From positions 62,001 through 126,000 of the forward strand of contig NZ_JAJNCZ010000009.1 in assembly GCF_021026345.1 (NCBI RefSeq): a DNA stretch of 64,000 nt, read 5' to 3'. The position numbers and the translations under genes were made by a program. The notes below the pieces were generated by a model. The model was not told the DNA's origin and made no database searches. It saw only the letters and a program-made list of their open reading frames with translations. Shown piece by piece: positions 17,046 to 40,637 of this stretch (its first letter is position 1; every line of letters begins with the position of its first letter). The DNA comes from Rhizobium sp. GN54. Lineage in GTDB: Bacteria > Pseudomonadota > Alphaproteobacteria > Rhizobiales > Rhizobiaceae.

Positions 17046-18971
17046 TCATGCTGTCAATTCATAGACTCGCACCGCGGCCTCGAAACCTTTCGGCGTCACG
17101 GTATCGACAGCTCTGAAGGCGAACCGATCCGCTACCTTTTCACGGACGGCGTCGCTGGTGAGGATCTCGGTGCCGTAATCCTTGTTCAGCGCCTCCAGCC
17201 GGGCCGCCATGTTCACAGTTGCGCCGAGAACCGTGTAGCTCATTCGATCCGACGAGCCAACATTGCCGACGACGGCCTCGCCCGTATGAAGACCGAACCG
17301 AGTTCTGTAGGCGGGCCAGCCCTCCCGTTCAAACTCCTGAATTAGCATATGGCTCGCGTCACGACATGCGAGCGCCGCGGAACAGGCATGTGCTACATGA
17401 TCTGGGTCCTCTGCCGGGGCATTCCAGATCGCCATGACCGCATCGCCGACGTACTTATCAACCGTGCCATTGTTTGCCATGATCACCTCGGTCAGCGCGG
17501 CAAGGTAACGGGAAGTGTAGAGCATGAGTTTTTCGGGATCTGCGTGCTCCGAGATATGGGTAAAGCCCGCGATGTCCGTGAACAAGATCGTGATCTCTCG
17601 GCGGGAGCCGCCGAGTCGCAACGCTGTTCCGCTCTCGATGAGCTGTTGTACAAGGCGCTTCGGGACGAAACTGGCAAAGGTCTGTACCACCGCCCGCATA
17701 GTCGACACTGATTGGCCCAGGTCGTCGATCTCACGGATCGAAGAGTGCACTCGCTTGCCCTCTCCCTGTACATCAAAACGCTGGATCTGATCGGTTTCTA
17801 CCGCCAGAGCATTCATGGAGCGGGATAGCAGCGAGCCGATCCACCAGACCACGGGCAACGAGGCAAAAACGAACGCGAGGGCGAGCAGGAGCAACCTGCG
17901 CCTTCCTGCCTCTACCTCCGAAAAGAACTCATCAAGCGGCGCCACGACAGCTAGGCGGAGATTAGCCGAACCGGCTGTCTCAATCGAACGGAACGCTGCA
18001 ACGTAGGTCCGGCCGTCCCGGGCCTCAAAGAACTGCTGGGCAACACCGCTCTGCCTCCACGCCATCAACGGAACGCCGACATCGATGGCCTCGACTTGAT
18101 CAAGTCGAGGCAGGTCCGCAGTGCCGTCCGAGGATGCGGCTTTCAAGAACTCGGTCATCCGCGGATGGGCGATCAGCCGGCCGCTGTCGTCGAACAGGAA
18201 GACTACACCCGACTGCCCTAGTTTCTGCGCGCGCAGGAAGGCATCAACGTCGGCGAGCAGTATGTCGCCAGCGACTATGCCGAGCCGCGGCGCCGTGAAT
18301 GGCGCCCGCACGGTGTACCCGATCAGGTTGGCAACCTTGAATACGTAAGGGTCGGTAATCGCGCCGGCGCCGGGCTCGAATGCGCCGAGATACCATGGCC
18401 TGGTCCGAGGATCGTAGTCCGCCTCGCGCTGCGCCTGAGTCAACGTCGTGAGGTCTGTGGAGAGAAAGTAGGTGGTCCGTATCCGTGTCGACGATCCAGG
18501 CGGTCGGTCCATCACGGTCAACCGGAAGGCTGAATCCGCGGGCGCCCCAAGTTGCGCCCGGACGGCAGGCCCGGCCCGGTCAAGGGCGTCGAGCTCGATA
18601 AAAGCTCCGTCGTCGTACCCGACATACAAGTTGTAGAGCTGTTCGTGTTGCCGAAGAAGCACCGCTAGGATTGCATTGAGGGACTGGTTGTCCGAGATCG
18701 CCGCGGTTTCCACGGAAGGGAGTTGCTTCAGCACCGCCAGGGCGCCCTGGACCTCCTTGAATTGCCGGTCCACCCGCTCCGCTGTGTGTTCTGCGACCCG
18801 GTCGATGAAGGTCAGGGCGGCGGTACGGGTGATCGCCTTCGCCCGGTCGAAGCTGAGGAAGACGAGGGCTAGGCCGACGCACAGGACGACCGCAACAAAC
18901 AGCGCGGTGATTGAGAGCTGGAATCCGATCCTGACGCGGTAGCGCGCTTTTCCCGTCGGCGTTTCCGGCAT
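17046..18971 (-). CDS. Membrane class III adenylyl/guanylyl cyclase with Cache and HAMP domains
   Basis: This 641-residue receptor cyclase makes cyclic nucleotide, most likely cAMP. A membrane helix lies at about 17-40. An extracytoplasmic double-Cache sensor fills about 55-345 (DPRTRPWY at about 187-194 is the classic dCache signature). A second helix lies at about 357-380, then HAMP, then the catalytic domain at 455-640. Catalytic residues visible are the metal Asp466 in FTDIAGFT, Lys506 in VDKYVGD and Asp510. The transition-state segment is in NMAARLEAL. It probably senses a small molecule outside the membrane. The downstream TPR gene and the sulfatase genes may be in its regulatory reach, but that is an inference. 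Confidence 0.92.
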   Translation of the reverse strand: MPETPTGKARYRVRIGFQLSITALFVAVVLCVGLALVFLSFDRAKAITRTAALTFIDRVAEHTAERVDRQFKEVQGALAVLKQLPSVETAAISDNQSLNAILAVLLRQHEQLYNLYVGYDDGAFIELDALDRAGPAVRAQLGAPADSAFRLTVMDRPPGSSTRIRTTYFLSTDLTTLTQAQREADYDPRTRPWYLGAFEPGAGAITDPYVFKVANLIGYTVRAPFTAPRLGIVAGDILLADVDAFLRAQKLGQSGVVFLFDDSGRLIAHPRMTEFLKAASSDGTADLPRLDQVEAIDVGVPLMAWRQSGVAQQFFEARDGRTYVAAFRSIETAGSANLRLAVVAPLDEFFSEVEAGRRRLLLLALAFVFASLPVVWWIGSLLSRSMNALAVETDQIQRFDVQGEGKRVHSSIREIDDLGQSVSTMRAVVQTFASFVPKRLVQQLIESGTALRLGGSRREITILFTDIAGFTHISEHADPEKLMLYTSRYLAALTEVIMANNGTVDKYVGDAVMAIWNAPAEDPDHVAHACSAALACRDASHMLIQEFEREGWPAYRTRFGLHTGEAVVGNVGSSDRMSYTVLGATVNMAARLEALNKDYGTEILTSDAVREKVADRFAFRAVDTVTPKGFEAAVRVYELTA

Positions 18972-19220: not shown

Positions 19221-20447
19221 TCAATGACCGGCCAAGACGAGCGTCTGCACTGGGAGCAGCACTGCTTGCATCCTTAGGATCATCGCATGCACGAGCCCAA
19301 CGGCATCGACGGCGTGCAAGAACAACCAACGGAGCGTACCGATATCCTGATCGGCGAGCGCGTCATGATTATTAGTGTATGCATTGGCGATGCAACTGCT
19401 TCCCGGCGGGATACCATCCAGGCCGCCAGGAAATAGTGGTTGCAGGAAGACGGTCAGCGTCCCCGGCTGCCCCATTTGCTGAACATCAATCAGTTGATCG
19501 TTCGCGCGCAATTGTCCGGCCGCGATGACATCCTGAACATCGGTCACCACCATGGGAATGATGGTGAAAGGCTTTCCTACACAAGTTGCTTCGGCGATCA
19601 TTCCTCGCTTGATCACCTGCGCTTCGATCTGCCCAAAACCAGCGACAAGGGTGGTTCGCCCGGCATTCTCCGGCACCAGAACACCGGCGGGGCGTAGCAT
19701 TGCGTTCACAACGTCGCCGGGGCGTAACGCAAACTGTTGCACCGTACCGGCGACGCCAGCCCGGACGAGCGTCTTGTCCAGTTCGACCTGCGCTTCCGCC
19801 AGGGCTGCTTCGGAGCTTGCCTTTTGGGTTGGGAATAAAACCCCGATCTGTGTCTCCAGGGTCTCTTTCTTTGCGAGCGCTGCATCTACCGCACCTTTGC
19901 GGCTATCGATTGCTGTTGCCAAGCGTTCGACTTCGCGCCTGGAAACAGCACCACTGTCCACAAGTTGTGCCTTCATCTCGTGTTCGTCGACCGCCATCTG
20001 ATAGGCACCCTGAGCCTCCTGGATCAGGCCATCCACGCCCGCAAGTTCGGTTTGCGCGACAGTCGTCTCCGCGACGATTTCGGCGATGCGCCGGCGAGCA
20101 GTCTCGAGGGCGGCTTTTTGCGCGGAACCGTCGAGGCGGAAGAGCGGTGCGCCTGCTTCGACCTTCCCGTTTACCTCAACATAAACCTCTTCGACGCGGC
20201 CGATCGTCTCCGGCAGAATCGTGACCGTCCGGAATATCGCCGTGACGTTCCTGGTCGAAGGGTGGAAGTAGAAAATCATCGTGATCAGCAAAACGGTCAG
20301 CAGTAGACAGGCGGTAATGCCCCAGCGTAGCTCGTACCACATGCTATAAAGAGTGATTTCGCGGCCAATCCGCTTCCCCTGAGCATAACGTCGATAAAGA
20401 TAGTCGGGGAGGATCGTAAGAATGGAGCAGAGGAACAACTCGAACAT
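19221..20447 (-). CDS. HlyD-family membrane fusion protein
   Basis: This 408-residue inner-membrane protein has one helix at about 47-66 (GITACLLLTVLLITMIFYF). Lipoyl/barrel-sandwich halves lie on each side of a coiled-coil hairpin (about 115-215), with beta-rich segments after it (TLVRAGVAGTVQQFALRPGDVV). Unlike ABC or RND adaptors, no transporter gene follows. Instead a small membrane protein gene lies directly upstream with a gap of three bases, as in yiaV/yiaW-type pairs. The last 60 residues carry a second hydrophobic region. Role is unknown; envelope transport or assembly is likely. Confidence 0.82.
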   Translation of the reverse strand: MFELFLCSILTILPDYLYRRYAQGKRIGREITLYSMWYELRWGITACLLLTVLLITMIFYFHPSTRNVTAIFRTVTILPETIGRVEEVYVEVNGKVEAGAPLFRLDGSAQKAALETARRRIAEIVAETTVAQTELAGVDGLIQEAQGAYQMAVDEHEMKAQLVDSGAVSRREVERLATAIDSRKGAVDAALAKKETLETQIGVLFPTQKASSEAALAEAQVELDKTLVRAGVAGTVQQFALRPGDVVNAMLRPAGVLVPENAGRTTLVAGFGQIEAQVIKRGMIAEATCVGKPFTIIPMVVTDVQDVIAAGQLRANDQLIDVQQMGQPGTLTVFLQPLFPGGLDGIPPGSSCIANAYTNNHDALADQDIGTLRWLFLHAVDAVGLVHAMILRMQAVLLPVQTLVLAGH

Positions 20448-20450
20448 CGA

Positions 20451-20891
20451 TCAGATACCCTCTCCGGGCGCATCCGTCTTGGGCGCTGGCTCAGCCGGCA
20501 CGACCGGTTCTTCGGATATCAGTGCAGGATCGCCTGTCGATTCCGCATCCCGGCCGGAAAGCTTCGCCAGGGATTGCGCGATGGAGTAAAGCGGTGACGA
20601 AAAATCTGGGATGTGGATAAAGGCCAGTAGCAGGCCGGCAATCCAGAAAAGGTGGTTGTGCGTAAAAAGCGAAATCAAAGCCAGGACGGCCACGACTTCC
20701 ATCTGCACCATGCTTGTGCGATGCGCCATGCGCTCGGGGACGGCATGAAGTTGAAAGTACAAATTGCCGATGACAAGCACTGCCAACAATAGGAAAATGG
20801 CAACGGCAACGAACAGATAATCGGTTTGCCCCGGCGGGCTTATGAAGACAGGCAAGTGCTCAATCGCGGCTGGATGAATCGTTTGTTCCAT
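20451..20891 (-). CDS. Small inner-membrane protein paired with HlyD-like protein
   Basis: This 146-residue protein has two or three membrane helices (about 25-45, 65-80 and 82-95) and a Pro/Ala/Glu-rich tail. I recognise no certain family. Its layout resembles the DUF3302 protein YiaW that partners YiaV, a HlyD-like protein, so I infer that the two gene products form a complex. The downstream gene starts three bases after its stop. Confidence 0.7.
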   Translation of the reverse strand: MEQTIHPAAIEHLPVFISPPGQTDYLFVAVAIFLLLAVLVIGNLYFQLHAVPERMAHRTSMVQMEVVAVLALISLFTHNHLFWIAGLLLAFIHIPDFSSPLYSIAQSLAKLSGRDAESTGDPALISEEPVVPAEPAPKTDAPGEGI

Positions 20892-28405: not shown

Positions 28406-30103
28406 TCAATTACTTCCAGCGACGATACCGACGATGACCGTTCCCCACGTGGTCAGCATGATGTGTCCAATCGGGACCGCCGGCGTGTAGCCGAGAACGG
28501 CAACCGTGCTCCCCGATCGATCCTGGACAGCCGCCATGGCGGCCGTCATGGTCTGCGCCCCGGCGAGCCCGCCAAGCAGCAAGATGGGGTTCATGCGCAG
28601 TATGTATCGCCCAAAGTAAAGCCCGACAATCATCGGCATGATGGTGACGATCATACCGCCGAACAGGAGCCCAATGCCCGCCTCGGCTATGGCGGAGGTA
28701 AACACAGGTCCGGCATGAAGGCCGGTCATCGCAACGAAGGCGGCAAGACCGAGCGCAGTCATCAGTGAAACGGCGGCATCCGGTATCCGGCCAAAGAGCG
28801 GAAAGTGCGTGCGCAAATGCCCCACCAGCAGGCCCAGCAGAAGCGTGCCCACGCTCGTGCTCAACGAAATTCGCATATTGCCGATAGGAAAGGTTACGAG
28901 AACGCCGACAAGGCCGCCCAAGAATATGGCAAGGCCGAGAACGAAGAAGTCCGTTGTCGTCGTCGGTGCAACGACTACGCCGATTCGCTTGGCGGCGTTC
29001 GATACGACCGCTTCGGGTCCCACAAGGCGCAGAATATCACCCCGGTCGAGCGTAATCCCTGGAGCGAGTGGAATTTCCTGCCCTCCGCGTGTAACCGTGC
29101 GTAGATAGAGGCTCCGCGCCCAGCCCTCGTTGGCGAGGTCCTCGATGCTGCGGCCGGCGACTTCACGGTTTGCCAGCAGCACGTCCGAGACCGATATCGG
29201 TACATCGAGCAGTTCGCGATCCTCTACTTCCTCGGCGCGCGGGCCGAGCACGTCGACCAAAGTCTGCCGTGTCCCCGACACGGCAACGATGTCTCCCGGC
29301 CTCATCAATATCTCCGGAGCCGCTTCCAGGATGGAATCGCCTCTGCGGATGCGTTGGACGAAAAGTCTGTTCCCCCGAAATCTCGCCTCCGCGTCCGCTA
29401 TGGACACGCCGGCGATCGGCGCGTTTTCCGCGATCCGGTAGGCACGCATTTCGAACCGATGCCAGGCCGAAGCGACCCCCACCGCCTTGCGGGTCATTCC
29501 GAATTCCTTCTCCAGATTCAGTGCCTCGGCAACCAGGTCTATGCCGAGCAGCTTGGGCCCGACGACACTGCAGAACAGAATGACGCCAACCGCGCCGAAC
29601 ACGTAGCAAAGTGCGTCGGCGACTGCGACGTGCGCAACGAAACGTACACGGTCCGCCTCGGGCAGTGGCAATGCATTGATCGCCTCGGTCGCCGTGCCCA
29701 TTGCCGGGCTCTCGGTCAGCGCCCCGGACAGGAGGCCCGCGGCAAAACCGGGATCAAGGCCAAGGAGCTTGGCAACCACGACTGCGGTGAGAAGCCCCGT
29801 CACGCATACCACGACCGCGAGGAGTACGGGTTTGATACCATCCCGCTTCAATGCCTGCAGGAACTGTGGTCCGACCGAATAGCCGATACCGAAGAGGAAC
29901 AGCAGAAACAGAAACGATTTCGCCATTCCGGAAACCGGAACTTCGGCGAACTGCCCGATGAAAATCCCGGCAAACAGAGAGCCGGTGACTGGACCGAGGC
30001 TGAAAGTCCCGAATTTGATGCCACCGATCAGGTATCCGATGCTGATGGCGAGGAATACGGCGAGTTCAGGATACTTGATGAGGAAATGCTCGACCCAAAC
30101 CAT
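28406..30103 (-). CDS. AspT-family (AAE) antiporter, second paralogue
   Basis: This 565-residue carrier has the AspT architecture: N-terminal membrane helices (about 1-180), a central hydrophilic part with two TrkA-C-like domains (about 205-370; GVSIADAEARFRGNRLFVQRIRRG, LRPGDIVAVSG-like MRPGDIVAVSG) and C-terminal helices (about 385-565). It is homologous over its full length to the AspT at 33433 but clearly diverged. The ATG at 30103 is chosen for MVWVEHFLIKYPELAVFLAISIGY, which matches the start of family members. It lies downstream of the large PLP decarboxylase gene, so it probably exchanges that enzyme's substrate and product. Confidence 0.85.
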   Translation of the reverse strand: MVWVEHFLIKYPELAVFLAISIGYLIGGIKFGTFSLGPVTGSLFAGIFIGQFAEVPVSGMAKSFLFLLFLFGIGYSVGPQFLQALKRDGIKPVLLAVVVCVTGLLTAVVVAKLLGLDPGFAAGLLSGALTESPAMGTATEAINALPLPEADRVRFVAHVAVADALCYVFGAVGVILFCSVVGPKLLGIDLVAEALNLEKEFGMTRKAVGVASAWHRFEMRAYRIAENAPIAGVSIADAEARFRGNRLFVQRIRRGDSILEAAPEILMRPGDIVAVSGTRQTLVDVLGPRAEEVEDRELLDVPISVSDVLLANREVAGRSIEDLANEGWARSLYLRTVTRGGQEIPLAPGITLDRGDILRLVGPEAVVSNAAKRIGVVVAPTTTTDFFVLGLAIFLGGLVGVLVTFPIGNMRISLSTSVGTLLLGLLVGHLRTHFPLFGRIPDAAVSLMTALGLAAFVAMTGLHAGPVFTSAIAEAGIGLLFGGMIVTIMPMIVGLYFGRYILRMNPILLLGGLAGAQTMTAAMAAVQDRSGSTVAVLGYTPAVPIGHIMLTTWGTVIVGIVAGSN

Positions 30104-30267
30104 GACCAGACTAGCTCCCACCCGCCCCGCCGTAGGGGCCCTCATTCTCGGCCTGAACACTGCAACTTGAGCTATGAAATGGGCCATGCGCGCGCGGCTC
30201 GTCTTCCCGCCCCGCAAATTTGCCGTGGCAGCGACAGCGCGCGAGCAGGACCCGAAGGCGCGGGAGC

Positions 30268-33006
30268 TTACCGCGGCGTTGCTCGCGCCGCCGGTCGCCG
30301 TTTTGCCTTGGCTGCAACCGCGTCGGCCTTGACCAGCTTCAGCCCACGGGCTTTCTCGTAACCATGGATCTCCTTGACATCCAGTTTGCGCATAAAGTCG
30401 ATCGTTTCCTGTGTCAGCACCTGGCCCGGCACCATGATCGGAAACCCTGGCGGATAAGGAATGACGAAGTTGGCGGAGACCATCTCCGGCCCGTCCTTGA
30501 GCCGACGGTCGGATTCGGAACCGATCAGCGGAACGTATTCGCAAACCGAGGCATCATACGCATTGAAGAAGGCGGTGCGGATGTCACCCTCCGGCGTCGT
30601 GCGCCCCGCATCGCCGCGGAACACCTCGTGGAAGTGGCTGAAGTTCGGAAGGTCCGGCACGTCGGTCATCAGCGACTTTACCCGCGCTGCGAAGGCGGCC
30701 CGTTCCTCCTTGCCGCCGTCCGCCAGGCGCTTCTCTATCCCATGGCAGATCTCGACAAGAACGCGGACGAGATGGGCGACATCACTGCGCGTGTTGTTGA
30801 TGTTCGACTGCAGCAGCACACTGTTGCGCGACGTTTTGTTCAACTGGATATCGTACTCGTTCGCCAGCAGCCCCTTGAATTGCGTTCCATCGAAACCGGC
30901 GGTTCCGCAAACCAGTGTCATGCGCGTGGGATCGAGATAGAACTCGTCCTCCCGCATTGCCTTGACCGCGGTTGCCCATGTCGAGCCCGGGGCCAGGAAG
31001 TCCTTGAAGCCTGACTGTCGATACGCAGCCGGGATCATTTCGTCGGCGCCGAGGACACGGAAGTATTTCGAGATCAGCTCGTGCTCGTTCACCGCTTGAC
31101 GGATCTTGAGCGCAATCTCGATTGCGTTCATCACCAGCCCGTAGCCATCGAGCTCCATCTGCCGCCGCGCGACGTCGAGGCTGGCGATCAGTTGCTGGTT
31201 CGGACTGGTCGAGGCGTGCGTGAACACGGCCTCGTGGAATTGCGCCTCCACAGTGTGAAAATCCACGTCCTTGACCAACAGCATGGAGCCCTGCCGGATC
31301 GCCGACATTGATTTGTGCGTGGAGTTGGTCTGGTAGACACGAAGTCGTACGAGGCGAGGGTCAGGGATCAGCCGCGCCGCAAGCAGTGTCTCGTCAGAGG
31401 GGTCCTCGCCGAGGTCCGCGCGTTGTTTTTCATAGGCCTCGGCCGAGGCGGGATCCCGCAGCCATTCCTCAATATCTGCGGCGGCCCCCATCGCCGTGCG
31501 CGGGCGCAGGAATGGCGAGAAGCGGGCAAATCCCGACCACGCCTCATCCCAGAGAAAGACAAGGTCCGGCTTGATTGCGAGACATTCCTCCATCACGCGC
31601 CTGACATTGTACATATGCCCGTCGAAGGTGCAGTTGGTCAGGTCGAGCAATTTCAACCGGTCGAGACGACCCTCAGCCCTCAGCGCCAGCAGCGCGCGCT
31701 TGATGGCGTCGAGCGGCACCGCGCCGTACATCGAATATTCCGTCATCGGGAATGCCTCGACGTAGTAGGGCTGTGCGCCCGTGAGGACCATGCCGTAATG
31801 GTGCGATTTGTGGCAGTTGCGGTCGACCACCGCGATGTCGCCGGGGGCCAGGAGCGCCTGCACCGCCATCTTGTTGGAGGTGGACGTTCCGTTCGTCACG
31901 AAGAAGACATGGTCGGCACCGAAGGCACGCGCGGCCATTTCCTGCGAGCGCTTGATGTTGCCGGTCGGTTCCAGCAGGCTGTCCAGCCCACCCGTCGTAG
32001 CGCTGCTTTCCGCCAAAAACAGGTTGAGCCCATAGAATTCGCCCATGTCCCGGATCCAGTCGGACTTGAAGACCGACTTGCCGCGGGCAATGGGCAGGGC
32101 ATGAAATGTACCGATCGGACGCCGCGCATACTTCTTCAGATTGTCGAAGAATGGCGTTTCGTACCGGTCCTGTACGCCTTCAAGAATGGCCAGGTGCATC
32201 TCGAGCGGCTCCTCGACCGCGTAGAAGATGCGTCGCACGGCATCTGCCGCCGGATCGCCGGCAAGCTTCTCCACCTGGCGGTCGGAGAGGAGATAGACGT
32301 CGAGTTCCGGACGAACCCGCTTCAAGCTACGGGCCAGGCGAAGAGCCGATGCATCCGGCCCCTCGGCTTCCCCGAGCGGATCGAGCACCGAGCGAAGCAC
32401 GGGCGCGTCGTGGCGCGAGCGATAGGGAAAACCTTCGGCGAGAACGACCGCAATGATATCGGGGTTCAACGCGGCGGCGCAGAACGCATCCTCGAAGGAT
32501 CCGACCAGAATGGGCTCATAGACGAAGGCATCCTCCGGCCGGCGCAGCCGCCGGATTTCAGCGGCGAAGGCGGGCCACCGCGCGGCCGGCTGGCTGTTGA
32601 CGAACAGGACCTCGAAATACGGCCGGCGACCGCCCGTTTCGCCGGTTCCCGGCGGCATGATATCGGCCACTTCGGTGTCCGACATCTCGTCATGGACGTC
32701 CCACTCGCCTGGGCGCGCGCGATAGGCGTGCGTGAGGAGCCCGTTTGAGATGCGACGCGCAAGTCTTGCCGCTCCGCCCGCGTCGTTGGTGGCGACGCGC
32801 TCCTTCAAGGCTGCGAGCAGTCGCACACCCGGATAGGCGTGGTACTCCTCCGCCGGCTCCACGGCGGCGATCGCCGTTTCCAGCGCGGACCGCTCGCCGT
32901 GGCTGGCGGCCCACGCATCGGCCAGCGCCGTGATGTCGCGCCAGTTGTCGGCGCGCGAAGAATGGATGAGCAGAAATTGATCGATATGTGTGGTCTTGCT
33001 TGGCAT
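30268..33006 (-). CDS. Large PLP-dependent Orn/Lys/Arg-type decarboxylase
   Basis: This 912-residue fold-type I amino acid decarboxylase removes CO2 from a basic or related amino acid. Residues 1-285 form an N-terminal part that includes a receiver-like wing (IIAVVLAEGFPYRS). The PLP domain follows with TNGTSTSNK (371-379), the cofactor Asp487 in LWDEAWSG and the Schiff-base Lys565 in NSTHKSMSA. The C-terminal domain ends near 890. Typical bacterial relatives have 710-760 residues, so it is unusually long at the N-terminus. GGAG precedes the ATG at 33006. It is flanked by AspT-family antiporters instead of the APC-type exchangers normal for this enzyme class; the true substrate is therefore open. 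Confidence 0.88.
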   Translation of the reverse strand: MPSKTTHIDQFLLIHSSRADNWRDITALADAWAASHGERSALETAIAAVEPAEEYHAYPGVRLLAALKERVATNDAGGAARLARRISNGLLTHAYRARPGEWDVHDEMSDTEVADIMPPGTGETGGRRPYFEVLFVNSQPAARWPAFAAEIRRLRRPEDAFVYEPILVGSFEDAFCAAALNPDIIAVVLAEGFPYRSRHDAPVLRSVLDPLGEAEGPDASALRLARSLKRVRPELDVYLLSDRQVEKLAGDPAADAVRRIFYAVEEPLEMHLAILEGVQDRYETPFFDNLKKYARRPIGTFHALPIARGKSVFKSDWIRDMGEFYGLNLFLAESSATTGGLDSLLEPTGNIKRSQEMAARAFGADHVFFVTNGTSTSNKMAVQALLAPGDIAVVDRNCHKSHHYGMVLTGAQPYYVEAFPMTEYSMYGAVPLDAIKRALLALRAEGRLDRLKLLDLTNCTFDGHMYNVRRVMEECLAIKPDLVFLWDEAWSGFARFSPFLRPRTAMGAAADIEEWLRDPASAEAYEKQRADLGEDPSDETLLAARLIPDPRLVRLRVYQTNSTHKSMSAIRQGSMLLVKDVDFHTVEAQFHEAVFTHASTSPNQQLIASLDVARRQMELDGYGLVMNAIEIALKIRQAVNEHELISKYFRVLGADEMIPAAYRQSGFKDFLAPGSTWATAVKAMREDEFYLDPTRMTLVCGTAGFDGTQFKGLLANEYDIQLNKTSRNSVLLQSNINNTRSDVAHLVRVLVEICHGIEKRLADGGKEERAAFAARVKSLMTDVPDLPNFSHFHEVFRGDAGRTTPEGDIRTAFFNAYDASVCEYVPLIGSESDRRLKDGPEMVSANFVIPYPPGFPIMVPGQVLTQETIDFMRKLDVKEIHGYEKARGLKLVKADAVAAKAKRRPAARATPR

Positions 33007-33432
33007 CGCACGCTCCAATTCAATTCCGAATGAACCATCCGCACGACCAATTCGCATGATGATTTGGCCCCGGCTAAAACAAAGGTTGAAAATGACTCTG
33101 CAGCATTTGGAGACTTGGCCCCGGCATTGCCCCCTGCGCAGCTTCAAAGACAATCCACTGCGGCCGGGGCCAGGCGCTGGGTCATCATCATTACAAGTAC
33201 CATGCCCCAGATTGTCAGCAGCGTATTGCCGACCGCATAGGTGACGGTATAGCCAAGCCGTGGGATCTGGCTCGGGCACGATCGTTGATCATGCCAAGTT
33301 CACGAACGTCGACCTCTTCCGCCGTCTGGACTGTTAGGCTCACCGGCATCACGCCGCATGCAATTGCGGAATGGTGAAGGACCGGCAACGAAGAGGCATC
33401 TTGCCCTTAGTGCGCCGGCTCCGAAGTGCGGG
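33007..33432. other. Intergenic region with an aspT relic
   Basis: This 426-base stretch lies between the antiporter at 33433 and the decarboxylase. It contains the antiporter relic at 33144-33340 and the upstream region of the decarboxylase gene (33007-33140). No intact gene is present. Confidence 0.6.
33144..33340 (-). pseudogene. Frameshifted relic of an AspT C-terminus
   Basis: On the minus strand the sequence encodes LGMINDRA and then, after a frameshift near 33275, [16 protein letters not shown] followed by [15 protein letters not shown] and a stop at 33144-33146. This matches the C-terminal end of the intact AspT at 33433 ([40 protein letters not shown]) almost residue for residue. 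It is a remnant of a third aspT copy immediately upstream of the decarboxylase gene. Deletion between tandem copies is the simplest origin. Confidence 0.8.
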
Positions 33433-35124
33433 TCAGGCAAGCAACATGACGACGACCATCCCCCAGATCGTCAGTAGCGTGTTGCCGATGGCATAAGTTA
33501 CCGTATACCCGAGTGCCGGCACCTGGCTCTTTGCAGCGTCCGTGATCATGCCGAGCGCCGCCGTCGTGGTCCGGGCACCGGCGCAGGCGCCGAACAGGAT
33601 CGCCGGGTCGAACTTGAACAGGTACTTTCCAGTGTACATCGCAAGGATCAGCGGAAGCGTGGTCGCAAGGACGCCCCAGAGGAACAGACTTATTCCAAGC
33701 TCCTTCAGCCCTGCCACGAAGCCCGGACCGGCACTGATGCCCACCACGGCGATGAAGACATTGAGGCCCACCGAATTCATGAACCAGACCGTCGATGACG
33801 GAATGCGCCCGAAGGTCGGGTGTACCGAGCGCAGCCAGCCGAACACGAGGCCGGAGATCAGCGCCCCGCCGGCAGTGGAAAGTGTCAGCGGCACACCGCC
33901 GATCGTCAGGACCAGCGAGCCGATGATCGCGCCGAGCGTGATCGCAGCGCCGATGAAGGCGACGTCCGCCACGTCGGTGGCGCGGTCGAGGTAGCCGATG
34001 CCTTTCGTGGCGGCAGCAATGTCCTGCGGGCGGCCGACAAGTGTCAGGATGTCGCCACGATGGATTTTTGTGTCCGACAGGATGGGGATAACCGTCGCGG
34101 TGGCGCCGCGCACGATCTTGCGCAGAAAGACGCCGCGAACGCTTGGCGACTTGGAAAGCTCGGCCAGCGTCCTGCCGTCGATCTCTTTGCTGGTAACGTA
34201 GACGTCCACACCCTCGGCCGGGACGTTCTGCAGTTCTGGGTCGTTCACTTCCTCGGCCGCGTGGCCGAGCACCTCGACCAGCACCTCGCGCGGACCTGCG
34301 ACGGCGACGACGTCACCGGCCTTGAGTATCGTATCGGCGGACGCCTCCTCGATGCGACCGTCGCGGCGGATGCGCTCGACGAAGACGCGCGCATCCGGGA
34401 CCATCGCCTCCGCCTGTTGGGCGGACATGCCCACGACGCGGCCCTCCGGTTTGATGCGGTAGGCCCTTAGTTCGAAGCGGTGCCAGGCGGAACCCGCGCC
34501 ACCGAGTTCCTTGGCGGCGCTGTGTCGGGTTTCATAATCCTTGCAGGCTGCTGCGAGGTCGATTCCAAGCAACCTTGGGCCGATGAGCGCTAGGATGACC
34601 GCCGATCCGGCTGTGCCGAAAATATACGTCACCGCGTAAGCGATCGGCATCGCATTGAGCATCGTGTTGGCCTGGTCCGCCGGTAGCCCGAGGCGATTGA
34701 TGGCGTCCGTGGCAAGTCCCATCGACGCGGAGATCGTCTGCGAACCAGCATAAAGGCCCGCGGCAGAGCCGACGTCGTAGCCGGCGAACATTGCCAGGCT
34801 CACCGGGATCGCCAAGCAGTAGATGCAGACGAGCACGGAGAAGGCGGCCTGGGGCAACCCATCCGAGGCGATGCCGCGCACAAATTGCGGCCCGACCCCA
34901 TAACCAACTGCGAAAAGGAACATCAGGAAGAAGATCGATTTGACGTTCGGCGAGACGGTGATGCCGAGTTGCCCGATGATCACGGCTGCGAGCAGGGTCG
35001 AGGTGACGGCACCAAGTCCCAACCCCTTATAGGTGAACTTGCCCACGAAATAGCCGATCGCCAGAGACAGGAAAATGGCGATCTCGGGATATTTTTGAAG
35101 CGTTCCGGCGAACCATTCCAACAT
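33433..35124 (-). CDS. aspT: Aspartate:alanine antiporter
   Basis: This 563-residue electrogenic exchanger imports aspartate and exports alanine. Membrane helices fill about 1-180 and 385-563, with two TrkA-C-like domains between (about 205-370). The ATG at 35124 has AGGAG eight bases upstream; a longer reading is not needed. It follows asdA by 54 bases on the same strand, the arrangement known from Tetragenococcus and other bacteria, where AsdA and AspT form a proton-motive metabolic cycle. Confidence 0.9.
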
Positions 35125-35178: not shown

Positions 35179-36804
35179 TTATGGTTGGGCCAGTTCGCCC
35201 TTCGCGGCGCGGTATGCCTGAAGATAACCGCGCGCCACCGCACGGATCGCCCGCCCGATCGAATCGTAGGCCTCGTCCGGCAAGTTGGCGAACGACACCC
35301 GGACCGACCAGTTCGGTGCGTCGAAACCCGAGCCGTTGAGCACCACGATGCCGTGGTCCTCGGCAAGCTTGAAGGCGATGTCGAGTGGGTGCACGTTCTC
35401 CTTCACCCAGTCCGTCACCTCCTCGCCCACATATTTGCGTGCCCAGTATTCGTAGTCGATGATGCCGTAGTAGCGATCGAAATAGGGCCTGGCCTTGAAC
35501 TCGATCCCCATGCCGTTCATCAGCTTCTCGAACCGCCGCTGGCAGATGGCCATGCAGGCCTTCTGATAGACCTTGTCCTGGTCCATCATCTCGACAAGGC
35601 CGAACAATGACATCATCACCTGCTGCGGCAGCGACAGGCCGGCCGTATGGTTCAGTGCGACGTCGCGGCTGTCGGCGACAATGCGGTCGATGAACTTGAG
35701 ATCGCGCGGGTGCGGTGTCATTGCCTTGTAACGGCCATCGAACAGCTTTTGCGTCGCCTCCGGCATCGCGCGTATCTTCTTGTCGAAAATGTTGTCTTGG
35801 GCGACAGCGACGACGCCGAGACGCCAGCCGGTGCACCCAAAGTACTTGGAATAGGAATAGACCCCGATCGTGTTGTGCGGCAGATGGCCCATGACCGATT
35901 CGAAATTCGGCACGAAAGTGCCGTAGACGTCATCCGTCAGGATCATCAGGTCCGGCCGTTTCGACTTCACGAACTTGACCAGCCGGTCCATGCTCTCCGG
36001 GTCGATTGCCACGGCCGACGGATTGCCAGGGTTGACGATGAAGAGAGCCTTGACGCTCTTGTCCTCCAGCGGCTTGAGGTCTTCGTCGGTGATCTGAAAG
36101 CGATCCTCGGCCTCCACCGATACAGTGATCTGTTTCAGCGCGTAGTCTTCAAGGTGCGGCATCTCCAGGTAGGGCGTGAAGATCGGCGTGACCAGAGCGA
36201 TGGTGTCGCCGGAATTGAGCAGTCGGGCGTTCTTCAATGCCTTGAAGATGTAGCACATCGCCGCCGTGCCGCCTTCGACCGGGTAGAGGTCGAATTTGTC
36301 GTTCGGGCGGTGGCCCGCGCACATGGCCCACATGAGATACTCGTGCGTGATCGCTTCATTGTGCACGAGCGCGCGGTCCGGCACGGGGTAATGGTCGCCG
36401 ATGATCGAGTCCGTCAGTTCGTTGACGAATTTGTCGGGATCGAAGGAGAACTTGGCAATGGCGAAGTCGACCGCGGCATCGAGCGTCTCGGCGCCGGGCG
36501 TGTCCGGATCGCCCTTCCGCCGGTCGACCCATCCTTTCAGGCGTTTGTAGCAGCCATCGGCGGGCGGCATTCCAGCAAGGCCGGCTTCCTCGTCAAACAT
36601 GACGCGCTTGGACTCGGTCAAGGCAAACTGGCCGAGAAGAAAGAAGGCTTCGCGCGCCTTGGTCGCGATCCAGTTGGGATTTCCGCGCCCTGCATTGAGA
36701 TACGCCCGTCCTGACTTGTCGGCCTGGGCCAGTCGGATGAGTTCGTCTTTGATCTCGAAAGGACTGAGGTCTACAAATTTTGCATAGATACCCGCATTAG
36801 TCAT
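35179..36804 (-). CDS. asdA: L-aspartate 4-decarboxylase (bifunctional aspartate aminotransferase)
   Basis: This 541-residue PLP enzyme converts aspartate to alanine and CO2, with side aspartate aminotransferase activity. Family landmarks are NAGRGNPNW (about 38-45), NPGNPSAV, LTDDVYGTFVP and the PLP Lys320 in SYSKYFGCTGWRLG. The long length, compared with about 400 in ordinary aminotransferases, is typical of AsdA. Three ATG codons are stacked; the third (36804) is best placed behind GGGGAGGA, and the first is 36810. With the downstream aspT it consumes a cytoplasmic proton and generates membrane potential. Confidence 0.92.
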   Translation of the reverse strand: MTNAGIYAKFVDLSPFEIKDELIRLAQADKSGRAYLNAGRGNPNWIATKAREAFFLLGQFALTESKRVMFDEEAGLAGMPPADGCYKRLKGWVDRRKGDPDTPGAETLDAAVDFAIAKFSFDPDKFVNELTDSIIGDHYPVPDRALVHNEAITHEYLMWAMCAGHRPNDKFDLYPVEGGTAAMCYIFKALKNARLLNSGDTIALVTPIFTPYLEMPHLEDYALKQITVSVEAEDRFQITDEDLKPLEDKSVKALFIVNPGNPSAVAIDPESMDRLVKFVKSKRPDLMILTDDVYGTFVPNFESVMGHLPHNTIGVYSYSKYFGCTGWRLGVVAVAQDNIFDKKIRAMPEATQKLFDGRYKAMTPHPRDLKFIDRIVADSRDVALNHTAGLSLPQQVMMSLFGLVEMMDQDKVYQKACMAICQRRFEKLMNGMGIEFKARPYFDRYYGIIDYEYWARKYVGEEVTDWVKENVHPLDIAFKLAEDHGIVVLNGSGFDAPNWSVRVSFANLPDEAYDSIGRAIRAVARGYLQAYRAAKGELAQP

Positions 36805-37162
36805 CATCATTCCTCCCCAAATCTCATGCCTGGCGGCAATCGACGCTGAAATGTGGACTTTACGCTCGGTCGAGGCATCGTACGTCGTGCTCGACTAAAA
36901 AGACAGATACATTCTTTGGTGGAGTGGGCTATTCGGCTTTATACTAAAAGTTCTCAAGCATGGCACGCCGTAGTTGATTCTCAAACTGGCACAATCTAGC
37001 ACTGTCTGTGCGGTGGAGGTTACGCAAGGTGTTCCATCGTTCTCCTGTTCAAAAGCACCTGAGGGCACGCCGCCTGCGCGGAAGTGACCAGGAATGACCT
37101 GGAAGATAGGATTGACGGCTCGAATCTACGGCGGCAATTGCGTGGATAAAACCGTGTGGCAT
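36805..37162. other. Upstream region of asdA
   Basis: This stretch of about 358 bases between the porin stop and asdA contains the asdA leader and presumably its promoter. I see no gene and no convincing operator; a TGGCAC string at 36962 does not have the spacing of a sigma-54 site. Confidence 0.4.
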
Positions 37163-38209
37163 TCAGAAGTTCCTCTGGAACCTCACGACGCCACCCCAGT
37201 TCTTCGCCTCGGGCCCGTCTTTTTCATCCATGTCGTTTCTGTAATTGAGCTCAGGCGTGACGGTAAAGCCGGGCACCACCGTGTACGCAATGTTGAGTGC
37301 CCCTTCGGCATCGCCACCCTCGTCGAAGTTGGCCGAGATGTTGATGGCTGCCTTCTCAGTCAGTTCATAGGTTCCGCCAACCCATAGCGCCCAGTCACCA
37401 TCCCAGTTGGTATAGACGTTGCGCTCGTCACCATCGGTGTTCCACCCGCCCATGGCGAAGACCGAAATCGGTCCAAACGTACCGTCCAGGCGGAGCTTCA
37501 ACGCGCCCGATTCGGTTTGGTCGACATACGCCCCGACGAAACGGGCCTCGAAGGCATCGGCCTTGTAGCCGACCGCGCCAACCATATCCGGCATATAGTT
37601 GTCGTCGCCATCTGTGGTCGGTTCGTCGTCGCTGTCGTCTTCCACCGATGCAGCAACGGACCAGCCCGCGCCACTCTTGTAGGTATAGCGGATCTGGTTG
37701 CGGCCGAAATCGCCATAGTCGACATCGTACCAGTCGTTGATCGTGTTTCCGGCATCACCCATGAATTCCGTATAGAGCGTATCGGAGAAGCCGAGCCGGA
37801 AGCCTGCTAGCTCGATATACATGTTCTCCATGTTGATGCTGGGGCTGGTGTTGTCGTCTCGATTGATCTCCGCTTCCGAATAGGTCTTCAGCGCACCGTA
37901 CTCCGTGTCAGCGGCCGTACTGATACGCAAAGTGAAGCGGGTGCGGGTAAACCAGGAATCACCGCCGCCGCCGGGGTAGGTGTTCTGTGGATTGACGTCA
38001 CCACCCTCGACGTCGAGGCGGAGATAGCCGCCGAGCTTGAGACAGGTCTCCGTGCCGGGAATGTAGAAGTAGCCGTCGCCGAAGGCGTCACAGACGCGCA
38101 CATATTCCATCGGCTCGGGCTCGGCGGCAATGATCGCATCGGCAGCTTGCGCGCCGGAAACTGCTGCCAGTGCCGCGCCCGTCCCCAAAAGCAAACGCTT
38201 CAATTCCAT
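37163..38209 (-). CDS. Alphaproteobacterial porin (Porin_2 family, RopA-like)
   Basis: This 348-residue outer-membrane beta-barrel has a signal peptide (residues 1-23, ending GAQAAD). Next comes the family motif of a cysteine pair in VRVCDAFGDGYFYIPGTETCLKLGGYLR (two halves, about 38-66). Alternating beta strands follow and the last residue is Phe (FQRNF), as needed for barrel insertion. GGAGGAG precedes the ATG at 38209. It would let small polar solutes such as amino acids enter, and it lies directly upstream of the asdA/aspT genes on the same strand. Confidence 0.9.
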   Translation of the reverse strand: MELKRLLLGTGAALAAVSGAQAADAIIAAEPEPMEYVRVCDAFGDGYFYIPGTETCLKLGGYLRLDVEGGDVNPQNTYPGGGGDSWFTRTRFTLRISTAADTEYGALKTYSEAEINRDDNTSPSINMENMYIELAGFRLGFSDTLYTEFMGDAGNTINDWYDVDYGDFGRNQIRYTYKSGAGWSVAASVEDDSDDEPTTDGDDNYMPDMVGAVGYKADAFEARFVGAYVDQTESGALKLRLDGTFGPISVFAMGGWNTDGDERNVYTNWDGDWALWVGGTYELTEKAAINISANFDEGGDAEGALNIAYTVVPGFTVTPELNYRNDMDEKDGPEAKNWGGVVRFQRNF

Positions 38210-38748
38210 GGCTGCTTCTCCTCCCGGCACCCGTCGTCGACCATATTCCGCTTATGATTAAGCACAAGCTCGGAATCGATTTTGACGAACGCGCGTCCGT
38301 CCGAAACAATTGCAGAGATGTAGGATGGTCACTAAAGACCTCCCACAGTCATCCGATTCGTGCCGCTACCTTGCCGGCCCTGGCAAGCCGCTGATAATAC
38401 GGGAAATGGGGTGCGGCCATCCCTGTTTTCCGCGCTACAAGCTACCTCGGCAGTCCTTCGCATGTCCGCTTTCGAGACTTCGCGAGGGTGGATTCTATGG
38501 CCGAGATGAAGGCGCAAAGCTGCCGCACGCTCCATCGCTGCGGCACCACAAACGTGAGATCCGAAAGCGGAAATAATTGCCGCTCGCCCGTCGTGTTGAC
38601 TGATGCCCAAAGCCAGGGCACAAATGTGGCATCCATGGTCGCTCGCGGCAGGAGAATATAGGGAAATCAAGGTATTTTTTCTAAGCCATTGAAATAATGT
38701 GAGAATCCAGGTTCCCCAGCCAATCCCCCGCTAAATCCGGCCTTCTCC
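38210..38748. other. Gene-free region downstream of chrA
   Basis: This stretch of about 539 bases holds the porin promoter region at its left side. Several short frames (up to about 110 codons on the minus strand near 38332-38670) show no family resemblance. A short match to the dispersed repeat core (AGCGGAAATAATTGCC) lies at about 38557. The stretch looks degraded. Confidence 0.4.
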
Positions 38749-40173
38749 CTACCCTCGCCCCGCCCCCGCGACGTGCCAGGCCATGCCGGCGAGCGCGCAG
38801 CAGGCGATGGTGGCGATGACCGGGAGCTTGAAGCGGAAGATGGCGAGGGCTGCGGCGGCGCTGAGGGCGAGCGAGGGGAGCGAAAGGGTGGACCAGACGG
38901 GCAGTTCCAGCCATAGCGGGCCGAGCCGCAGAATGTCCGTTCCGGCGAACAGGAAATGCAGGCCGAACCAGAGCGCGAGATTGACGATCACGCCGACGAC
39001 GGCCGCGGTGATCGCCGACATCGCGCCCGCGAGTGCGGCATTGCCCCGCAGCCTTTCGATGAACGGGGCGCCAAGGAAGATCCACAGGAAGCACGGCAGG
39101 AAGGTGACCCAAGTGGCCAGCACGGCCGCCAGCGTCGCTGCGGTCATCGGATCGAGGCTGCCGGGATTGCGGTAGGCGCCCATGAAGCCGACGAATTGCA
39201 GGACCATGATCAGCGGTCCCGGCGTCGTCTCGGCCATGCCGAGGCCGTCGATCATCTCGGTCGGCTTCAGCCAGCCATAGTGCTGGACCGCCTCTTGGGC
39301 GACATAGGAGAGCGCCGCATAGGCGCCGCCGAAGGTGACAACGGCCATCCTGCTGAAGAACAGGCCGATCTGCGTGAACACGTCGTCGCTGCCGAAAAGG
39401 ACATAGAGAAGCGCCACGGGGCCGAGCCACAGGAAAAGCAGCACGGCGCTTATCCGCAGCGACCATCGAAGGTTCGGCCTGGCGTGGTCCGGCGTGCCCT
39501 CCCCCAGCACCGAATCGTCATCGGAAAGGCCCGCGCCAGCGCCCGCCCTGTCGCCGGCGCCGGGCTTGAAGAGAGTCGCGCCGGACCGCGAGCCGACAAA
39601 GCCGGCAATGGCCGCGGCAATGATGATCAGCGGAAAGGAGATGCGGAAGAAGAAGATCGCGACGAAGGCCACCGCAGCGATCGCGATCATGGCGGGGCTG
39701 CGCAGCGCGCGGCTGCCGATGCGGATCGCGGCCTGGACGACGACCGCGAGCACGGCCGCCTTGAGGCCGAAGAACATGCCTTCGACCACGCCGACGTTCC
39801 CAAAGGCGACGTACAGGTAGCTGAGGGCGAGGATGGCGAAGAAGCCCGGCAGCACGAACAGCACACCGGCGACGAAGCCGCCCGCGGTCCTGTGCAGCAG
39901 CCAGCCGATATAGACGGCAAGCTGTTGCGCCTCCGGCCCGGGCAGCAGCATGCAATAGTTCAGCGCATGCAGGAAACGGCGTTCGCCGATCCACTTCTTC
40001 TCGTCGACGACGATCCTGTGCATCAGGGCGATCTGCCCGGCGGGCCCACCGAAACTCAGCGCCGCCACGCGGAGCCAGACATGGAAAGCCTCGCGAAAGG
40101 AGATGCCATGCGCCATTCCACCGTCCTTCTCGCCACGACGCGCGCCGCGGGCGACGGCAGCAGACATCTTCAT
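38749..40173 (-). CDS. chrA: ChrA-family chromate transporter
   Basis: This 474-residue membrane protein has the two-repeat CHR architecture. The first repeat starts with FREAFHVWLRVAALSFGGPAGQIALMHR and includes the proline/glycine-rich LPGPEAQQLAVYIGW. The second has FFSRMAVVTFGGAYAALSYV and TTPGPLIMVLQFVGF. Homologues export chromate by chemiosmotic antiport and give chromate resistance. The ATG at 40173 gives MKMSAAVARG and has a purine-rich GGAGGGG upstream. No chrB regulator is visible. Confidence 0.9.
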   Translation of the reverse strand: MKMSAAVARGARRGEKDGGMAHGISFREAFHVWLRVAALSFGGPAGQIALMHRIVVDEKKWIGERRFLHALNYCMLLPGPEAQQLAVYIGWLLHRTAGGFVAGVLFVLPGFFAILALSYLYVAFGNVGVVEGMFFGLKAAVLAVVVQAAIRIGSRALRSPAMIAIAAVAFVAIFFFRISFPLIIIAAAIAGFVGSRSGATLFKPGAGDRAGAGAGLSDDDSVLGEGTPDHARPNLRWSLRISAVLLFLWLGPVALLYVLFGSDDVFTQIGLFFSRMAVVTFGGAYAALSYVAQEAVQHYGWLKPTEMIDGLGMAETTPGPLIMVLQFVGFMGAYRNPGSLDPMTAATLAAVLATWVTFLPCFLWIFLGAPFIERLRGNAALAGAMSAITAAVVGVIVNLALWFGLHFLFAGTDILRLGPLWLELPVWSTLSLPSLALSAAAALAIFRFKLPVIATIACCALAGMAWHVAGAGRG

Positions 40174-40196
40174 CGAATCATTCCCCTCCACCACCG

Positions 40197-40637
40197 TCAG
40201 CTCCAGGCACCGGTCGCCAGCGCAAGCACAGCATAGCGACCGACCTTGGCGACCGATACCAGCACCAGGAAGGTCGCCAGCGGCACCCTGAGGATGCCGG
40301 CTGCGACCGTGATCGGATCGCCGATGACCGGCAGCCAGCTCGCCAGCAGCGACCACTTGCCATACCGCCCGTACCAGCGCCCGGCCGCATCGAGGCTTTT
40401 GGCGGAAACGGGAAACCAGCGCCTGGTCCGAAAGCGGGCTATACCGCGCCCGAGTGACCAATTGACGACGGAACCGAGGATGTTTCCGACGCTTGCAACG
40501 GTGACGAGCGCGACGACGGGATAGTCCCCGGTCAGGATCAGGACGACGAGCGCGGTCTCCGATTGCGCCGGAAGGACGGTCGCGGCCAGGAAGGCTGCCA
40601 GAAAGAGGCCGAGATAGGCGCCGACTGCTGCGGTCAT
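40197..40637 (-). CDS. YqaA-family membrane protein (DedA/SNARE-associated relative)
   Basis: This 146-residue inner-membrane protein has four or so helices and the family motifs LPAQSETALVVLIL, SVGNILGSVVNWSLGRG and WLPVIGDPITVAAGILRVP. YqaA proteins are distant relatives of DedA; their transport role is uncertain. It follows the RcnA gene by 42 bases and precedes the chromate transporter gene by 23 bases, so the three may be co-transcribed. Confidence 0.85.
   Translation of the reverse strand: MTAAVGAYLGLFLAAFLAATVLPAQSETALVVLILTGDYPVVALVTVASVGNILGSVVNWSLGRGIARFRTRRWFPVSAKSLDAAGRWYGRYGKWSLLASWLPVIGDPITVAAGILRVPLATFLVLVSVAKVGRYAVLALATGAWS

What the first reader, a model, noticed from the sequence alone, without database searches (positions are those of the whole stretch)
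28406..33006. Orn/Lys/Arg-type decarboxylase paired with an AspT-family antiporter
Decarboxylases of this class normally pair with APC-superfamily exchangers (AdiC, CadB, PotE). Here the partner on the same strand is an AspT-type (AAE) carrier, with a second AspT/AsdA pair upstream. Either AspT-family carriers can exchange a different substrate/product pair, or this decarboxylase has a substrate other than the basic amino acids. It would be a new proton-motive decarboxylation cycle.
Basis: partly seen in the sequence, partly recalled or inferred. Interest (0 to 1): 0.72.

Follow-up and report, generated by a model that had tools for sequence, protein, structure and literature searches.

The report
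Decarboxylase locked to aspartate-type exchangers
A soil bacterium carries an amino-acid decarboxylase of unknown substrate whose gene has stayed beside membrane exchangers of the aspartate/alanine type in many relatives, which points to an undescribed acid-consuming, energy-saving cycle that can be tested directly.

Summary
Minus strand: aspartate 4-decarboxylase (36810-35179), an AspT carrier (35124-33433), an Orn/Lys/Arg-fold decarboxylase (DEC, 33006-30268), a second AspT carrier (30103-28406). The pairing is not chance: in DEC's own clade (A) 76 of 87 loci have an AspT-family gene within about 600 bp, and 6 of 6 later loci have one next door; in the sister clade 0 of 17 plus 0 of 9. Six of the eleven exceptions still have an AspT pair 10-13 kb away. 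On the DEC tree adjacency arises once, with about four losses, while the class of the nearest carrier changes 10-15 times. DEC fails all curated arginine, lysine and ornithine decarboxylase models; the lysine/ornithine side-chain residue (CadA E526) is Asn in 87 of 87. AdiA also lacks that Glu, so arginine is not excluded. The nearest solved relative, Rv2531c, has no known activity. A glutamate symporter lies close by in 7 of 87 loci. My reading: a decarboxylation/exchange cycle, probably on an acidic amino acid, glutamate to GABA leading. The substrate is inferred, not shown. New variant of a known kind.

The parts
30268..33006 (-). DEC: PLP decarboxylase of the Orn/Lys/Arg fold, clade A, 912 aa (P0001, the numbering used here, starts 9 residues after the ATG)
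   Evidence: PF01276 235.8 bits; best solved relative 9n0o Rv2531c, 732.7 bits over residues 42-895; Foldseek of the predicted model ranks 9n0o first
28406..30103 (-). AspT2: AspT-family (AAE) carrier directly downstream of DEC, 565 aa, carrier class 1
   Evidence: TIGR03802 555.5 bits, cut-off 546.95; carrier tree
33433..35124 (-). AspT1: AspT-family carrier next to AsdA, 563 aa, carrier class 6
   Evidence: TIGR03802 688.2 bits; carrier tree
35179..36810 (-). AsdA: aspartate 4-decarboxylase, 543 aa
   Evidence: TIGR03801 711.3 bits, NF006755 727.5 bits; closest solved chains are L-aspartate beta-decarboxylases
33180..33272 (-). Relic of a third AspT carrier (last 31 residues), where relatives have a full AspT gene upstream of DEC
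   Evidence: 96.8% aa identity to carriers upstream of DEC in L006, L007, L009, L030; 85-88% DNA identity over 123-136 bases to L110, L014, L006
31312..31314 (-). Codon of the PLP lysine (K556 of P0001, motif STHK)
   Evidence: Aligned with CadA K367; K in 87 of 87 clade A and 17 of 17 clade B
30838..30840 (-). Codon of N714, the position of CadA E526 (side-chain amine recognition proposed for lysine decarboxylase)
   Evidence: N in 87 of 87 clade A and 17 of 17 clade B; E in CadA, SpeC, L132, L133; T in AdiA

Best explanation
DEC and its neighbouring AspT-family carrier form a decarboxylation/exchange cycle. The carrier brings in an anionic amino acid, most likely glutamate; DEC removes the alpha-carboxyl group with PLP in the cytoplasm, consuming a proton; the carrier expels the neutral product (GABA). 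Each turn would move one negative charge inward and use one proton, making proton-motive force and raising cytoplasmic pH, as AspT/AsdA does with aspartate and GadC/GadB with glutamate. Shown here: the genes, the conserved pairing, the altered active site. Inferred: the substrate, the exchange, the physiological effect. I put the functional coupling of DEC with AspT-family carriers at about 0.88; the confidence below is for the glutamate version.
For: Pairing: 76 of 87 clade A loci have an AspT ORF within about 600 bp of DEC, 0 of 17 clade B loci have one in the stretch read (Fisher p 1.6e-12, loci not independent). Six of 6 later clade A loci have one next door, five on the same strand within 600 bp and L192's divergent, 620 bp away; 0 of 9 later clade B loci. 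Tree: clade A is one clade (SH-aLRT 100, quick tree); AspT adjacency needs 5 changes, shuffled mean 24.8. The class of the nearest carrier changes at least 15 times over 42 rows, 14 with two related classes merged, 10 over the 37 rows with a downstream carrier. Class 12 is directly downstream of DEC in 36 of 37 copies. Known AAE carriers move aspartate, succinate, glutamate (PMC9527358, PMC9508256, passages). CadA V524 and E526, proposed to bind lysine (PMC5607190, passages), are Q712 and N714 here. A sodium/glutamate symporter lies within 3 kb of DEC in 7 of 87 clade A and 0 of 17 clade B loci; 5 of 5 scanned match PF03616, 3 of 4 scanned pass the gltS cut-off; 23 clade A genomes hold 0-2 each. 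Canonical glutamate decarboxylase (TIGR01788) is over cut-off in 2 of 24 clade A genomes, five more below it; none in the window's genome.
Against: No activity is known for any clade member or for Rv2531c (PMC12910592, passages). Eleven of 87 clade A loci lack a full AspT gene nearby; in six of them an AsdA-AspT-AspT set lies 10-13 kb off, so there the carriers sit with AsdA, not DEC. N714, R718 and R299 are shared with clade B, which has no AspT neighbour, so they do not prove an acidic substrate; AdiA lacks the glutamate at this position yet uses arginine. A change of nearest carrier can be loss of one of two carriers, not a new recruitment. GltS is in 7 loci only, six of one subtype. R76, implicated in transport by Tetragenococcus AspT, is Ser in AspT2 and Gly in AspT1. 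The tree program flags L192 as a long branch. Acid induction was not tested; an HdeA relative was found in 1 of 104 loci (one query).
Confidence: 0.38

Rival explanations
1. DEC decarboxylates aspartate at the alpha position to beta-alanine, and AspT-family carriers exchange aspartate for beta-alanine. It would share its substrate with the neighbouring AsdA.
For: Carrier class 6, the class that stands next to AsdA, also stands next to DEC, in some loci with no AsdA seen in the stretch (L041, L044). AsdA is in 24 of 87 clade A loci.
Against: Two enzymes would compete for aspartate in one cluster; a glutamate symporter recurs near DEC. 63 of 87 clade A loci show no AsdA in the stretch read.
Confidence: 0.17
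2. DEC is a divergent basic amino acid decarboxylase, most likely for arginine, and AspT-family carriers here exchange the amino acid for its amine. This would be a new substrate pair for the carrier family.
For: After Rv2531c the nearest solved enzymes are AdiA, LdcI and ODC. AdiA has Thr, not Glu, at the CadA E526 position, so N714 does not exclude arginine.
Against: No curated ADC, LDC or ODC model is met (171.3, 165.9, 143 bits against 1167, 968, 794). Known AAE substrates are acidic or neutral. E. coli AdiC and CadB as queries find nothing in 93 clade A loci.
Confidence: 0.2
3. DEC acts on some other amino acid, such as a non-protein acidic amino acid, with a matching AspT-family carrier.
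For: Positions fixed in clade A only (H455, Q595, C691, Q724, N728) suggest a specificity unlike both the sister clade and the classical enzymes.
Against: No set of genes for such a pathway stood out among the recurrent neighbours, though most clusters were not annotated.
Confidence: 0.14
4. The genes are neighbours only because they lie in a shared stress island; DEC and the carriers do not share a substrate.
For: Other genes recur around DEC in clade A and not in B: SulP in 34, an HlyD-like protein in 34, a PPK2-like protein in 31 of 106 loci; SulP is often directly upstream. In six loci without a near AspT the AsdA-AspT-AspT set lies 10-13 kb off in the same region.
Against: AspT is by far the most frequent and closest neighbour, of several classes; class 12 carriers are almost always directly behind DEC (36 of 37); basal clade A members of another bacterial class have AspT too.
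Confidence: 0.11

Closest known systems
Rv2531c of Mycobacterium tuberculosis (PDB 9n0o, 9n0n, 9n0p)
   Same: Full-length sequence and fold match (732.7 bits, residues 42-895; Foldseek rank 1), ARG motif at R299, N at position 714, Q at position 595
   Different: R718, R731, H455 and N728 are I, W, V and G in Rv2531c (alignment). No activity is known (PMC12910592, passages).
AspT/AsdA aspartate-alanine cycle
   Same: Same carrier family; AsdA and an AspT are neighbours in the window; decarboxylation coupled to electrogenic exchange is the proposed logic
   Different: AsdA is an aminotransferase-type beta-decarboxylase; DEC is of the Orn/Lys/Arg fold
AdiA/AdiC, CadA/CadB basic amino acid systems
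   Same: Enzyme fold, PLP lysine motif, decarboxylase-carrier gene pairing (adiA/adiC and cadA/cadB seen)
   Different: Carrier family is AAE, not APC; DEC fails the curated models; E526 is Asn and the PGH-GG stretch reads PIARGKS
GadB/GadC glutamate-GABA system
   Same: Would be the same chemistry if DEC uses glutamate
   Different: GadB belongs to PF00282 and GadC is an APC carrier (recalled); DEC does not match PF00282

Membership tests
Orn/Lys/Arg decarboxylase fold family (PF01276) | Score over the curated cut-off | tested here: met
   235.8 bits, cut-off 27
Orn/Lys/Arg decarboxylase fold family (PF01276) | PLP lysine in S-x-H-K | tested here: met
   STHK; K in 87 of 87 clade A loci
Arginine, lysine or ornithine decarboxylase proper | Score over the curated NCBIfam cut-off | tested here: not met
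   171.3/1167, 165.9/968, 158.5/1056, 143/794, 139.9/1310, 92.2/950 bits
Lysine/ornithine decarboxylase | Acidic residue at CadA E526 for the side-chain amine | tested here: not met
   N714 in 87 of 87; role of E526 is a proposal and docking result in PMC5607190 (passages)
Arginine, lysine or ornithine decarboxylase proper | Activity on the basic amino acid | not testable with these tools
   Needs an enzyme assay
AspT (aspartate-alanine antiporter, TIGR03802) | Score over cut-off 546.95 | tested here: met
   AspT1 688.2, AspT2 555.5. Two class 12 carriers from other loci score 380.2 and 365.8 and do not meet it
AspT (aspartate-alanine antiporter, TIGR03802) | R76 in TM3 as in Tetragenococcus AspT | tested here: not met
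   G in AspT1, S in AspT2 at the aligned place; R76's role from a title cited in PMC9508256. Whether it defines the family is not known to me
AspT (aspartate-alanine antiporter, TIGR03802) | Exchange of aspartate for alanine | not testable with these tools
   Needs a transport assay
AsdA, aspartate 4-decarboxylase (TIGR03801) | Score over cut-off 435.1 | tested here: met
   711.3 bits
Decarboxylase-antiporter acid-resistance system | Conserved decarboxylase/carrier pairing | tested here: met
   76 of 87 against 0 of 17; trees
Decarboxylase-antiporter acid-resistance system | Carrier exchanges substrate for product; induced by or protective against acid | not testable with these tools
   Needs experiments
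Glutamate decarboxylase GadB (PF00282, TIGR01788) | Sequence family | tested here: not met
   DEC matches PF01276, PF03711 and, weakly, PF01212, not PF00282

The most novel reading that the evidence does not exclude
An Orn/Lys/Arg-fold enzyme has been turned to an acidic amino acid (glutamate, or aspartate) and pairs with AspT-family carriers, giving bacteria that mostly lack GadB a glutamate/GABA-type proton-motive cycle. The carrier family would then have several exchange pairs, with a class (12) dedicated to this enzyme, and the orphan Rv2531c-like group would get its first functional lead.
Probability: 0.45. Interest if true: 0.78.

Novelty: new variant of a known kind. Interest (0 to 1): 0.62.

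Why it matters
Decarboxylation/exchange cycles are a main way for bacteria to survive acid and save energy. If confirmed, this adds a new enzyme-carrier combination, widens what AspT-family carriers can exchange, and gives a testable function to a structurally solved but uncharacterised decarboxylase group.

Tried and rejected
An arginine/agmatine system with an APC carrier was looked for: E. coli AdiC and CadB as tblastn queries (E 1e-3) found nothing in 93 clade A, 17 clade B and 2 other loci. 'Neighbours by chance' was rejected on the sister-clade contrast and the trees. R718 as a mark of the AspT-linked clade was dropped: 16 of 17 clade B loci have it. The AlphaFold model (pLDDT 70.7, several active-site loops below 50) came without coordinates, so no pocket could be read; it only confirmed the fold. 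GabT/SSADH genes beside DEC in L120 looked like support for GABA but stand next to ectoine-utilisation genes and were not counted. The pairing was not seen in print: searched an open-access library; the lists were capped, and the three papers were seen as listings (one of them, PMC9508256, also as passages). Subscription journals are not covered. The cryoEM paper on Rv2531c is not held.

Rows and dependence: the 87 clade A loci are those of 106 above 57% identity to the window DEC. They include two loci of one strain twice (L008/L026; L019/L064), so counts are of loci, not species, and one search returned only the best 80 of 276 matches. One search used 76 rows, thinned by hand, with 6 of the 11 loci without AspT. 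In one search, 42 of 43 AspT rows had a carrier state (L037 had none); classes depend on a chosen depth. Gaps use a nominal DEC length of 2,700 bp; its 77th locus within 3 kb is a 111-residue fragment in L085. Not recounted: short stretches L090-L094 (clade A; 5 of 5 show an AspT hit) and two partial matches, L149 and L150, which were not read further. Clade B loci L195 and L197-L199 are on short contigs, so an AspT beyond the end cannot be excluded. L207 is the same stretch as L079 and was left out of the later loci. The names SulP, HlyD-like and PPK2-like were partly given by me from resemblance; only a SulP gene was named by a record.

I had also given 15 carrier changes without the stricter counts (14 and 10).

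Full report
What is in the sequence. The window is bases 62001-126000 of contig 28 of a 5.57 Mb genome, nearest by its decarboxylase to Ensifer and Rhizobium loci (best 92% identity). On the minus strand, in order of transcription, lie AsdA (36810-35179), AspT1 (35124-33433), DEC (33006-30268) and AspT2 (30103-28406). AsdA and AspT1 are separated by 54 bases, AspT1 and DEC by 426, DEC and AspT2 by 164. The 426-base gap holds a relic of a third AspT gene: its last 31 residues, 97% identical to carriers standing upstream of DEC in L006, L007, L009 and L030. The ancestor probably had an AspT on both sides of DEC, as 19 of 87 clade A loci still do.

What the enzyme is. DEC matches the Orn/Lys/Arg decarboxylase fold (PF01276, 235.8 bits) but falls far below every curated arginine, lysine and ornithine decarboxylase model that it hits. 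Its best solved relative by sequence and by fold is Rv2531c, described in a 2026 review as a probable decarboxylase whose activity was not clarified (PMC12910592, passages). The PLP lysine and its motif are intact (K556, 87 of 87), so it should be active. The residues proposed to bind lysine in lysine decarboxylase, V524 and E526 (docking and an older proposal cited in PMC5607190, passages), are Q712 and N714. N714 and Q712 are found in 87 of 87 clade A and 17 of 17 clade B loci; the PGH-GG stretch of the classical enzymes reads PIARGKS. AdiA has Thr at the E526 position, so arginine remains possible. Five positions are fixed in clade A in at least 86 of 87 loci and differ in all 17 clade B loci: H455, Q595, C691, Q724 and N728.

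How conserved the pairing is. In clade A 76 of 87 have an AspT ORF within about 600 bp of DEC; in clade B 0 of 17 have one anywhere in the stretch. Six further clade A loci all have one next door: L187, L188, L189, L205 and L206 on the same strand within 600 bp, L192 divergently, 620 bp from the extended DEC frame. None of nine further clade B loci has one. The eleven clade A exceptions are L011, L013 and nine Bradyrhizobium loci. L011 keeps a stretch similar to the AspT relic upstream of DEC and L085 a 111-residue fragment. All eleven genomes hold AspT genes. In six (L058, L061, L068, L074, L080, L081) an AsdA-AspT-AspT set lies 10-13 kb from DEC; in L059 and L085 it is on another contig, in L082 on a contig of the same length with DEC outside the stretch read. 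In L011 and L013 AsdA-AspT lies on another contig. On a 76-row quick tree clade A is a single clade with SH-aLRT 100, and AspT adjacency needs five changes (read as one gain, four losses), against 24.8 for shuffled labels; the program flags L192 and the outgroups as long branches. Clade A members of another bacterial class (L121, L187, L188, L189) keep the pairing.

The carriers are not one inherited gene. A tree of the carriers gives seven classes standing next to DEC; the class of the nearest carrier changes at least 15 times over 42 DEC rows, 14 if two related classes are merged, 10 over the 37 rows with a downstream carrier. Some of these may be loss of one of two carriers. Class 12, two members of which score only 366-380 bits on the aspartate-alanine antiporter model (cut-off 546.95), is directly downstream of DEC in 36 of 37 copies. 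Different carriers of one family beside one enzyme clade are hard to explain unless DEC needs such a carrier.

What the substrate may be. AspT exchanges aspartate(1-) for alanine(0) (PMC9508256, passages), and the family also contains succinate and glutamate exporters (PMC9527358, passages). In 7 of 87 clade A loci a sodium/glutamate symporter lies within 3 kb of DEC, in 0 of 17 clade B loci. Five scanned match PF03616 at 283-380 bits; three of four scanned exceed the gltS cut-off, the fourth (297.6) just misses it. Six of the seven are one subtype (56-91% identical), L043 has another. The 23 clade A genomes searched carry 0-2 such genes each, so seven neighbours are far above chance, though they may be only three or four events. 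A canonical glutamate decarboxylase is over cut-off in 2 of 24 clade A genomes; five more have a weaker match, and the window's genome has none. The only PF00282 protein of the window's genome scores best, but weakly (108.5 bits, cut-off 900), as a diaminobutyrate decarboxylase. I therefore favour glutamate, then arginine or aspartate. This part is inference.

How it would work. The carrier brings in the anionic amino acid, DEC decarboxylates it and takes up a proton, the carrier expels the neutral product; charge movement plus proton use makes a proton-motive force. The neighbouring AsdA/AspT1 pair would do the same with aspartate. The acid-stress setting is only hinted at: one locus (L111) has an HdeA-family gene nearby, and one query found no other in 104 loci.

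Distribution. In an even sample of 398 genomes of the phylum, 19 had a match at 1e-60: 7 clade A, 10 clade B, 2 others (classed). In 200 genomes of the family of L052's genome, 5 had one at 1e-200. The cluster is patchy, in keeping with transfer or frequent loss.

Verdict. The enzyme is a distinct, uncharacterised clade rather than an ordinary basic amino acid decarboxylase with an odd partner. Whether the cycle is new rests on an assay that can be done with one purified protein.

Noticed in passing
window 33272-33180: Relic of the C-terminus of a third AspT carrier between AspT1 and DEC; a similar stretch stands upstream of DEC in L011 (7684-7840).
   Followed up: yes
L113, L118, L119, L122-L131 and L190, L191, L193-L199: The sister decarboxylase group (B) often sits in another recurrent cluster: carbon-nitrogen hydrolase, GabT-like aminotransferase, an ATP-grasp 'biotin carboxylase' and a C45 peptidase, with peptide ABC transporters in some. 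It looks like an undescribed pathway.
   Followed up: no
L182, L183, L186, L208-L216: Genomes whose DEC lacks a near AspT carry a tandem AspT-AspT pair next to AsdA; in six Bradyrhizobium it is 10-13 kb from DEC.
   Followed up: partly
window 19221-20447 and 20451-20891: An HlyD-like protein (my naming) and a small protein, neither matching Pfam; relatives of such proteins recur near DEC in 34 and 25 of 106 loci, all clade A. That the window genes belong to these clusters was judged by eye.
   Followed up: partly
window 17046-18971: Adenylate/guanylate cyclase with a dCache sensor domain.
   Followed up: no
window 38749-40461: Chromate transporter family protein, upstream of the Porin_2 gene (37163-38230) that precedes AsdA.
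   Followed up: no
L111 15855-16148: HdeA/HdeB-family acid chaperone near DEC-AspT-AsdA in Rhizobium sp. T1473.
   Followed up: partly
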